NCBI GenBank assembly: GCA_902705825.1
Contig: CACSIL010000002.1
Coordinates: 145,166 to 209,165 of the forward strand
DNA length: 64,000 nucleotides
Direction: 5' to 3'
DNA from: Halioglobus japonicus
GTDB lineage: Bacteria; Pseudomonadota; Gammaproteobacteria; Pseudomonadales; Halieaceae
In this document: positions 35,405-43,070 of the stretch, one piece after another
Layout of the letters: the number at the start of each line of letters is the position of its first letter
How positions within the stretch are numbered: the stretch's first letter is position 1
Notes under the pieces: generated by a model
The model's input: the letters and a program-made list of their open reading frames with translations, nothing else
Told to the model about the DNA's origin: nothing
Databases searched by the model: none
Made by a program: the position numbers and the translations under genes

Positions 35405-35676
35405 TGTTTATTGGCGCGTGTGTTTTAAAGAATATGAGGTTGCACCTTTGTCGAAAAATTTCGCTGCGATGTTGTTACAACAATGCAAATTACGGAAGCC
35501 TTCAGGCCATTGGGTGTGGGGAAGCTATGCAGCGAATGGCTTTTTCTTTTGAGCAAGCATAGCTTCCCCACACCCAATGGCCGCGAATAACCAGCAAAAA
35601 CAACCCGTTGCCAGCAGCCCCCAACGTCCATCAAAATTCCAAATCGAACGACATGCCAGACATGCGATAGCCAGAG
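35405..35676. other. Convergent spacer holding hairpin element 1
   Basis: 272 bases between the 3' ends of phzF and bioA. Apart from the 78-bp element at 35505-35582 I see no gene. Frames crossing the hairpin are by-products of its inverted repeat. Confidence 0.5.
35505..35582 (+). repeat. 78-bp hairpin element, copy 1 (26-26-26 layout)
   Basis: A perfect 26-bp inverted repeat (35505-35530 against 35557-35582, GGCCATTGGG... against ...CCCAATGGCC) surrounds a 26-nt loop (35531-35556). The 28 nt from 35532 to 35559 match copy 2 (41673-41700) at 24 positions in the same orientation: GCGAATGGCTTTTTC then TTTTGAGCAAGCA. The arms share only the ends GGC...TGC with copy 2. It lies about 100 bases from two converging 3' ends. 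It is not an intrinsic terminator, because its T-rich stretch lies in the loop. No transposase or terminal duplication is visible. Confidence 0.85.
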
Positions 35677-41457: not shown

Positions 41458-41781
41458 GTCGTTAGCTTAACCCAAAAGGCGTGAGAGCTGGAACTTGCTC
41501 TTTCATGGGTAACCCTTTTGCGCCTAATTGGCAGGGTATTAGAAGTATGCAATGTATCGCAGAGGATACAGTGGCAAATCGGGAGACTAGTTGCTGAGTG
41601 TGCCGTGTAGTTGCTGCTCGCTTCAATCACAGAGTCGCGATGCGAGGCGAGCGGCAGCGATAGCACTCTGCGGCAAATGGCTGTTTCAGTTGAGCAAGCA
41701 GGATAGCATCACTGCCGCTCGCCGTTGGACCACCGCAGAAATGGGCCAATCCAATAGTGAATCAGCCCAATCAAAAAAGCC
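41458..41781. other. Spacer between the TetR start and the mdh stop
   Basis: 324 bases. It contains the TetR promoter side with repeated TAACCC motifs (about 41468-41515), then hairpin element 2 at 41646-41723, then about 58 bases to the mdh stop with no clear terminator. No gene is seen. Confidence 0.5.
41646..41723 (+). repeat. 78-bp hairpin element, copy 2 (26-26-26 layout)
   Basis: Arms 41646-41671 and 41698-41723 pair at 20 of 26 positions: 12 contiguous pairs at the outside (GGCGAGCGGCAG), then GAT, one isolated pair, and CTGC at the loop. The loop 41672-41697 is 26 nt, the same as copy 1. The core 41673-41700 (GCAAATGGCTGTTTC then AGTTGAGCAAGCA) is 24/28 identical to copy 1. It lies 59 bases after the mdh stop. 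The arm sequence is unrelated to copy 1 apart from GGC at the outside and TGC at the inside. Confidence 0.8.
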
Positions 41782-42762
41782 CTACGGCAGCAAGTGCTTA
41801 ACCGCGTCGCGCTCCTCTGCCAGTTCCTGCTCAGTGGCAGCCAGCTTCTCACGGCTGAAATCACCGATCTCAGCGCTCTGCACGATCGTCCACTCGCCAT
41901 CACTGCAACGACAGGGGAAGGAGTAAATCAGGCCTTCCTGAATGCCGTAAGAACCATCAGATTGAACACCCATGGAAACCCAGTCATCACCGTCTGTGCC
42001 CAGTGCCCAGGAGCGCACGTGACCGATGGCAGCGTTGGCAGCAGAGGCGGCCGAGGAGGCGCCGCGAGCCTTGATAATGGCGGCACCACGCTGTTGCACT
42101 ACCGGGATGAAATCGTTTTCATACCACTGCTGGTCGACCAGGCTGATTGCAGATTCGCCATCAACCTTGGCATTAAACAGGTCGGGATACTGGGTGGCCG
42201 AGTGGTTGCCCCAGATTGTCATATTGGTTACATCGTTGACTGTCTTGCCGGTCTTGAGCGCAATTTGCGTTTTCGCCCGGTTGTGGTCCAGCCGTGTCAT
42301 CGCGGTGAAGTTGCGTGGATTGATGTCCGGGGCATTGCGCTGTGTGATCAATGCATTGGTATTGGCGGGGTTGCCGACAACCAGTACCTTGATGTTGCGG
42401 CTGGCGTGGTCGTTGATCGCTTTACCCTGTACAGAGAAAATAGCGGCGTTGGCTTCCAGCAGATCCTTGCGCTCCATACCGGGTCCGCGTGGACGCGCAC
42501 CAACCAGCAGGGCGTAATCAGAATCCTTGAAGCCGATATTGGGGTCGTCGGTGCAAACGATGCCAGCCAGCAGAGGAAATGCGCAGTCTTCGAGTTCCAT
42601 TTTAACGCCGTCGAGCGCTTCCAATGCCGGTGTAATATCCAGCAGTTGCAGAATCACAGGCTGGTCATCACCCAGCATGGCGCCGGAAGCTATACGGAAA
42701 ACAAGAGCATAGCCAATCTGGCCAGCTGCGCCGGTTACAGTCACGCGAACAGGTTGTTTCAT
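41782..42762 (-). CDS. mdh: Malate dehydrogenase
   Basis: 326 residues of the cytosolic-type bacterial MDH. It shows [12 protein letters not shown] (9-20) for [23 protein letters not shown], the substrate Arg in [34 protein letters not shown] and catalytic His in [12 protein letters not shown]. It oxidises malate to oxaloacetate in the TCA cycle. GAGGA supports ATG 42762; the longer frame adds 72 non-family residues. Confidence 0.95.
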
Positions 42763-43070
42763 GGGAGAGTGATCCTCATAAATGAATTGATGCCCAAATA
42801 AGCGGCGGACATTGTCGTGGCAAAACGGCGAAATTACAAGTTGAGCGCGTCCGGGGAGGGAATTCGAAAACACCGCACGGTATTTCGGGACGCCCGCTGA
42901 CAGCGGCCTCTTATCACTACTGCGGCGGTTTTGGTTGCGCTGATGGGGTTTGAGCGGTGCAAATGTGGCCATGATCAACGATAGTTCGTCAATTCACTGG
43001 TACGCAACTGGACGCGACCAAGTACTAGCAAGTAAAATGCCCGCCAAATCAAGCACTAACGGCAATCACT
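42763..43070. other. 308-base divergent promoter region, mdh/ttcA
   Basis: No gene is seen. It holds the mdh leader on the minus strand and a possible ttcA promoter on the plus strand (see the entry at 43009). There is no clear operator. Confidence 0.4.
43009..43038 (+). promoter_or_regulatory. Possible ttcA-ccm promoter
   Basis: TGGACG (43009-43014), an 18-base spacer and TAAAAT (43033-43038), 32 bases before the GTG of ttcA. It is a moderate match to sigma-70. Confidence 0.35.

What the first reader, a model, noticed from the sequence alone, without database searches (positions are those of the whole stretch)
41646..41723. Second copy of the hairpin element with different arms but the same core and sizes
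Arms 26 nt, loop 26 nt, core 24/28 identical to copy 1 and in the same orientation. The arms pair at 20 of 26 positions, so this copy looks older than the perfect copy 1. Both copies sit within 60-100 bases of a stop codon. Two copies with unrelated but self-complementary arms are evidence for a mechanism or selection that keeps pairing rather than sequence.
Basis: seen in the sequence. Interest (0 to 1): 0.8.

Follow-up and report, generated by a model that had tools for sequence, protein, structure and literature searches.

The report
Conserved-tip hairpin repeats in Halieaceae
The two window hairpins belong to a scattered family of intergenic DNA repeats in some marine bacteria whose long stems change almost freely yet stay paired while the tip stays much the same, which suggests that something recognises the folded single strand by its tip.

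Summary
In detail: copy 2 (41646-41723) has arms 26, loop 26, 20/26 pairs and a 24/28 core match to copy 1 (35505-35582). It belongs to a family of intergenic hairpins in a few Halieaceae genomes (type-B tip pattern in 8 of 140). Twelve type-A stems pair at 95.5% of cells, with double changes in 20 of 26 pairs. The core is a closing G-C, a covarying pair, a tandem G.A/A.G step and a second covarying pair, then a variable loop. Both window copies have orthologous hairpins in G016, with partly recoded arms. The near relative G001 has a different hairpin type, as an inverted pair, at the copy-2 site and apparently at the copy-1 site. So the arms descend and are compensated, not made afresh. Arrangement is BIME-like (two-member groups -+ 13, +- 2, ++ 1), but stems (20-31 bp) exceed published REP stems (5-13), and neither RAYT nor reverse transcriptase follows the family. 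G.T exceeds A.C on the motif strand, favouring selection on one folded strand, RNA or ssDNA. Most likely a new variant of bacterial palindromic repeats, read by its tip; binding partner and mobility enzyme unknown.

The parts
41646..41671 (+). left arm of copy 2
   Evidence: pairs 20/26 with 41698-41723; orthologous arm in G016
41672..41697 (+). tip (loop plus inner tandem G.A step) of copy 2; the first G of the tandem G.A step is an A here (GCAAAT for GCGAAT)
41698..41723 (+). right arm of copy 2
41639..41645 (+). 5' flank GATGCGA, seen just before the stem in several other type-A copies
   Evidence: flank list read by eye
35505..35530 (+). left arm of copy 1
   Evidence: 26/26 WC pairs
35531..35556 (+). 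tip of copy 1 with the GCGAAT...TGAGC module
35557..35582 (+). right arm of copy 1
41782..42978 (-). lactate/malate dehydrogenase-family gene (mdh); its stop lies 59 nt from copy 2
   Evidence: Pfam PF02866, PF00056
40831..41457 (-). TetR-family regulator on the other side of copy 2
   Evidence: Pfam PF00440
34571..35404 (+). PhzF-like gene left of copy 1
   Evidence: Pfam PF02567
35677..36966 (-). class-III aminotransferase right of copy 1, convergent with PhzF
   Evidence: Pfam PF00202

Best explanation
A family of non-coding intergenic hairpin repeats of some Halieaceae. Each unit is a stem of 20-31 bp (26 in type A) of nearly free sequence, topped by a conserved tip: a closing G-C, a covarying C-G/T-A pair, a tandem G.A/A.G step, a covarying A-T/G-C pair, then a variable loop. 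What is recognised is the folded single strand that carries GYGART...YGARC. The tip is the recognition site; the stem only has to pair, so it drifts by stepwise compensation. Units often sit as inverted pairs or short tandem arrays between genes, like REPs in BIMEs. I infer that they act as protein-bound single-strand hairpins (RNA near gene 3' ends, or ssDNA) and that they spread or are exchanged by an enzyme encoded elsewhere. Shown: the family, covariation, orthology at both window sites, a type replacement at one site (apparent at a second), inverted pairing. Inferred: the binding protein, the 3'-end role, the mobilising enzyme.
For: Core and stem go together: of 15 core hits (up to 2 mismatches) in G000, G001 and G016, 14 sit in hairpins and one (L016) does not. 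Covariation in the 12 aligned: 95.5% of 312 cells paired, 20 of 26 pairs with double changes, slid controls 36-43%. Tip pairs covary: 33/35 and 31/35 standard pairs, 0 of 5000 shuffles as high. Thirty type-B representatives, chosen for having a stem, have stems so different that shuffling right arms among them cuts pairing from 552 to a mean of 319 (max 366) of 660 cells. G.T over A.C: 39:18 in 47 representatives, p 0.0075; 81:14 over 82 hairpins. Orthologs at both window sites in G016, a different type in G001. Two-member groups -+ 13, +- 2, ++ 1. In 2.46 Mb of the own genome 15 of 22 long hairpins carry the 5' half of the motif.
Against: No orientation bias to co-directional neighbour genes (10 with, 8 against) and none to GC skew (11 against 11 of 22), so neither the RNA nor the replication-fork version gains support. 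A.G and C.T mismatches are equal in the filtered set (10:10), although the unfiltered counts favoured A.G (43:14; 17.2:5.5 cluster-averaged). No T-tract follows the two window hairpins. No transcript data. The type-B pattern is in only 8 of 140 family genomes, which speaks against an essential role.
Confidence: 0.5

Rival explanations
1. Template switching during replication keeps the arms complementary by copying one arm from the other; no selection on a folded strand is needed.
For: A published mechanism (PMC8794818, abstract and outline seen; PMC8604942, abstract start in the listing). Copy 1 is perfectly paired while 9 stem pairs differ on both sides from its ortholog. E-type stems of G000 (29 bp) and G001 (26 bp), at different sites, differ in length yet are largely paired. 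Adjacent double changes 35 against 28.6 expected, p 0.058.
Against: At 1-3 differing pairs 89 of 97 changes are one-sided. G.T exceeds A.C. Pairs inside the tip also covary. The clustering test is not significant.
Confidence: 0.2
2. Each insertion makes new arms by inverted copying of the target flank.
For: Type-B representatives have nearly unrelated stems (mean left-arm identity 30%, but they were picked to be under 70% alike).
Against: Orthologous copies share 16 of 26 stem pairs; arms form graded families; the orthologous spacers of more distant genomes hold no hairpin with the motif.
Confidence: 0.05
3. Ordinary REP/BIME elements with unusually long stems, moved by RAYT or, as proposed for CGTC REPs, by other transposases.
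For: Inverted pairs and arrays, mostly intergenic. CGTC overlaps the 3' foot in 14 of 74 hairpins against 2 in 148 control windows (many of the 14 may be related copies), and CGTC REPs are said to lack a dedicated transposase (PMC3733652, abstract). 6 of the 8 type-B carriers do have a PF01797 gene.
Against: No PF01797 gene in G014 and G016, which carry the hairpins. None of 16 PF01797 loci, most with up to 1.5 kb of flank, holds the tip motif with a stem. Published stems are 5-13 bp (CGTC 8-9) and loops 2-20 (CGTC 4-5) (PMC3733652, passages). GTAG: 0 of 74.
Confidence: 0.15
4. They act as transcription terminators that replaced the intrinsic one.
For: After mdh, 8 of 11 genomes without the element have an intrinsic terminator of -12 kcal/mol or better; 0 of 4 with element or remnant have (best -7.4, G000) (cut-off set after seeing the values).
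Against: No T-tract next to the two window hairpins on either strand; no sense orientation bias; the mdh case is one clade, perhaps one event.
Confidence: 0.15

Closest known systems
REP elements (GTAG and CGTC superfamilies) and BIMEs
   Same: dispersed intergenic palindromes, opposite-orientation dimers and clusters, types differing between species, G.T stem pairs (PMC3733652, abstract and passages; BIME definition in the abstract start of PMC2817692); CGTC at the 3' foot of some copies
   Different: stems 20-31 bp against 5-13; long tip with tandem G.A step; stem sequence nearly free; no GTAG at the foot (0 of 74); RAYT does not follow them
REPINs (PMC3116915, search listing only)
   Same: miniature repeats built of inverted palindromes, presented as mobile DNA
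   Different: dependence on RAYT and conserved REP ends with a variable middle are recalled; here RAYT is missing from two carriers and the middle is what is conserved
Correia elements of Neisseria (PMC2649163, abstract start in the listing)
   Same: small element with inverted repeat and conserved core
   Different: a conserved inverted repeat there (recalled), freely varying stems here
HUH-Rep origin stem-loops of small rolling-circle replicons (recalled, no call)
   Same: conserved loop on a stem that must pair but may vary
   Different: those are single origins of replicons; these are dispersed chromosomal copies, and no Rep gene was searched for

Membership tests
REP elements (GTAG/CGTC) | short stem of 5-13 bp | tested here: not met
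   arms 20-31 bp, median 25, in 78 hairpins
REP elements (GTAG/CGTC) | unpaired GTAG or CGTC tag at one end | tested here: inconclusive
   GTAG 0 of 74 at either foot; CGTC 3 of 74 at the 5' foot and 14 of 74 at the 3' foot, 2 in 148 control windows
RAYT-mobilised REP | RAYT (PF01797) in carrier genomes, flanked by the repeats | tested here: not met
   absent in G014 and G016, present in the other 6 of 8 type-B carriers; 0 of 16 PF01797 loci hold the motif hairpin (up to 1.5 kb flank)
BIME | units in alternating inverted orientation, clusters | tested here: met
   groups: 34 single, -+ 13, +- 2, ++ 1, 8 of three or more (strict motif, so some partners are missed, for example at L065 and L113)
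Rfam families | score above a family gathering threshold | tested here: not met
   none (window, L003, L005, L007) or (five loci, where sub-threshold hits are nine microRNA-like and one isrG)
Intrinsic terminator | GC hairpin followed by a T-tract | tested here: not met
   flanking sequence of both window copies; the scan allows loops of 3-8 only and so cannot judge these hairpins
Retroelement-derived repeat | reverse transcriptase in carrier genomes | tested here: not met
   no PF00078 in G000, G001, G008, G013, G014, G015, G016; G027 and G032 not searched
Integron attC site | R box pair GTTRRRY and integrase | not tested
   motif and idea recalled; no search made

The most novel reading that the evidence does not exclude
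The tandem-G.A tip is the target of an unknown nuclease or recombinase that acts on extruded hairpins and moves or swaps whole hairpins between sites, so that the same intergenic spots carry different hairpin types in sister species: a hairpin-tip-directed element system with a structure-only stem.
Probability: 0.15. Interest if true: 0.85.

Novelty: new variant of a known kind. Interest (0 to 1): 0.6.

Why it matters
REP-type palindromes are classed by their stem and loop sequences and end tags. Here mainly the tip and the pairing are kept, and orthologous sites exist with recoded stems and with exchanged types. That is a natural experiment on whether selection, template copying or transposition keeps such hairpins, and it gives a defined motif with which to fish for the protein that reads them.

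Tried and rejected
RAYT as mobiliser: presence does not follow the hairpins and its loci lack the motif hairpin (16 loci, 11 of them from hairpin carriers). Reverse transcriptase: absent from the seven carriers searched. Rfam: nothing above threshold. Viral contigs: 0 exact matches with a type-A and a type-B pattern. Plasmids (copy 2 query) and phages (copy 1 query): no match. Genes beside arrays: 10 of the 43 ORFs listed were scanned; none is a transposase, recombinase or reverse transcriptase by Pfam. Orientation to genes or replication: no bias. Template-switch clustering: p 0.058. The A.G strand asymmetry was dropped after the filtered count. Five of the 11 hits of the loose pattern (L040, L044-L047) show no hairpin in the scan. 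Two genome-contig hits of 39 (L111, L120) show no motif hairpin and look like chance.

Caveats: types were defined by tip motifs and representatives picked to be under 70% alike in the left arm, so the contrast of stem identity (30% type B, 47% type A) with tip identity (83%, 85%, equal-length pairs only) is partly built in. Searches kept only sites with a stem. Of the 15 hits, 12 were aligned; left out were L016 (no hairpin), the C19 copy with an N and the contig-end copy on G016:C1. Gene context rests on naive longest-ORF calls; at L018 it says divergent although the synteny says otherwise, and 27 of 82 hairpins overlapped a naive ORF. Some hairpins taken as single have a partner (L110, L207). 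Four of the 13 -+ groups come from one genome with alternating arrays (JANSYN01). The same genomes appear in two collections (contig lengths of G016 and JAUICG01 agree), so overlap. Hairpin pairs are not independent.

Full report
What is there. Copy 2 lies at 41646-41723 and copy 1 at 35505-35582, both on the + strand, each 26+26+26 nt. Copy 2 pairs at 20 of 26 positions and copy 1 at 26 of 26; the 28-nt core matches 24/28. The core pattern is found twice in the window against 0.02 expected, and no shuffle of 200 folds as well as either strand of either copy.

A family, not two copies. The core has 7 hits in the whole genome at up to 3 mismatches, 6 of them hairpins. Among 57 genomes (own and relatives) at up to 2 mismatches, 3 have it (G000, G001, G016), 15 hits, 14 of them hairpins. 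Twelve were aligned (three left out, see Tried and rejected): 95.5% of 312 cells pair, 20 of 26 pairs have a change on both sides, and sliding the partner by 1-3 columns drops pairing to 36-43%. A model built from them has hits in 4 of 18 genomes of the genus, the fourth being G008 (only 150 first-look candidates were scored per genome). It also led to hairpins with other tips, and beside type A lay a second type, B. A scan for long hairpins that used no motif, over 2.46 Mb of the own genome (about half; contigs with known hits were taken first), gave 22; 15 carry G(C/T)GA(A/G)T at the tip. Thirteen of the 15 lie in the roughly 0.86 Mb taken first (C52, C53, C2). The decayed copy 2 did not pass that scan.

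Distribution. A type-B tip pattern gave 39 stretches in the collection of 84,980 species genomes. Thirty-seven come from six records: three Gammaproteobacteria MAGs, a Haliea MAG, a Halioglobus MAG and Pseudohalioglobus sediminis (Halieaceae); the other two (L111, L120) have no motif hairpin. With up to 2 mismatches, 8 of 140 genomes of the family have it, in 3 of 28 genera: G015 42 places, G013 26, G014 26, G000 16, G016 8, G027 7, G032 4, G001 2; the reversed control pattern hits 5 times in the 140 genomes, once of these in a carrier, G032. Viral contigs, phages and plasmids gave nothing.

Tip. Across 84 motif-bearing hairpins (35 representatives with left flanks under 70% identical) the pattern is G-N-GA-N-T...N-GA-N-C. 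The second base pairs with the second from the end in 33 of 35 (CG 24, TA 5, TG 3, GC 1; AA 2). The base after the first GA pairs with the base before the second GA in 31 of 35 (AT 16, GC 14, GT 1; AG 3, AC 1). No shuffle of 5000 reaches either count. This sets the two GA steps opposite each other, a tandem G.A/A.G module (that such modules form sheared pairs in RNA and DNA is recalled). The search pattern itself required the two GA steps and a stem, so these are not independent evidence; the covariation beside them is. Copy 2 has lost the first G (GCAAAT).

Stem evolution. Representatives of type B share 30% of stem and 83% of tip positions, of type A 47% and 85% (partly built in by the choice of rows). 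Shuffling right arms among 30 type-B representatives drops pairing from 552 to a mean of 319 of 660 cells. Among same-type hairpins, pairs that differ at 1-3 stem pairs show 89 of 97 changes one-sided; at 10-12 differences 386 of 491 are double (not independent). G.T exceeds A.C on the motif strand: 81:14 over 82 hairpins, 26.2:6.3 cluster-averaged, 18 clusters against 4, 39:18 in 47 representatives, p 0.0075. An apparent A.G excess vanished (10:10). Together this looks like stepwise compensation on one folded strand. Template switching (PMC8794818, abstract and outline) remains possible; its expected clustering of double changes is 35 against 28.6, p 0.058.

Orthologous sites. DNA searches with both spacers and their genes show the G016 hairpins to be orthologs of copies 1 and 2: 16 of 26 stem pairs identical at each site, 9 and 7 changed on both sides, 1 and 3 on one side. 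At the copy-2 site G001 carries an inverted pair of a third type, E (tip CCAAGCGAATCACGTGGAGCGAC). At the copy-1 site two G001 contigs end inside E-type sequence, so the same type is likely there, but the contigs are not linked. G008 keeps what looks like only the right half of a hairpin at the copy-2 site and no hairpin is found at its copy-1 site. The other 11 genomes matched at the copy-2 site have no hairpin with the motif there; 8 of them have an intrinsic terminator of -12 kcal/mol or better after mdh, while none of the 4 with element or remnant does. This is one clade and may be one event.

Arrangement. Groups within 420 nt: 34 single, 13 -+, 2 +-, 1 ++, 8 larger. Tandem units of about 160 and 299 bp occur on contig C19 and about 340-370 bp in JANSYN01. 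Neighbours by naive ORFs, where no ORF overlaps the hairpin: 18 co-directional, 13 convergent, 4 divergent, 20 at an edge; 27 of 82 overlapped a naive ORF. Orientation to co-directional genes is 10 with and 8 against, and to GC skew 11 and 11. At the foot GTAG is absent (0 of 74), while CGTC overlaps the 3' foot in 14 of 74 against 2 in 148 control windows.

No enzyme found. PF01797 is absent from G014 and G016 although both carry the hairpins, and present in the other 6 of 8 type-B carriers; none of 16 PF01797 loci has the motif hairpin. Reverse transcriptase is absent from the seven carriers searched. Ten of 43 ORFs next to arrays were scanned and show no transposase.

Literature. Searches listed no paper on such repeats in Halieaceae or on hairpin repeats with conserved tip and free stem; I saw only the listed titles and abstract starts (in, 10 of some thousands). 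PMC3733652 (abstract and passages) is the nearest catalogue that I saw. This is absence from these eight searches of an open-licence library, not proof.

Verdict. I file it as a new variant of bacterial palindromic repeats: BIME-like in layout, not REP by stem length or RAYT link, undecided by end tag.

Noticed in passing
L124 7280-7420; L123, L136: In G013-type units the hairpin is flanked by GCGAATATG on the left and CAGCCTTCC(G/A)AGG on the right, which looks like a tip motif split by another unit. L112, L114 and L129 show only part of it (L112 is cut on the left). Possibly nested insertion.
   Followed up: partly
L067 19281-19336, L182 1495-1544, L131 4792-4890: Separate palindromes with AAGGGGTCAGA arms; a similar one lies in a PF01797 locus, L054. 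A different repeat family.
   Followed up: no
L187 11122-11214: A hairpin with 36-bp arms and a 21-nt loop without the tip motif.
   Followed up: no
L003, L009, L012, L242, L259: Contigs end in or close to these hairpins, so copy numbers from draft genomes are probably too low.
   Followed up: no
L081 12937-13027: A hairpin with GCGAAT at the tip but a 37-nt loop and no GARC end, perhaps a diverged type.
   Followed up: no
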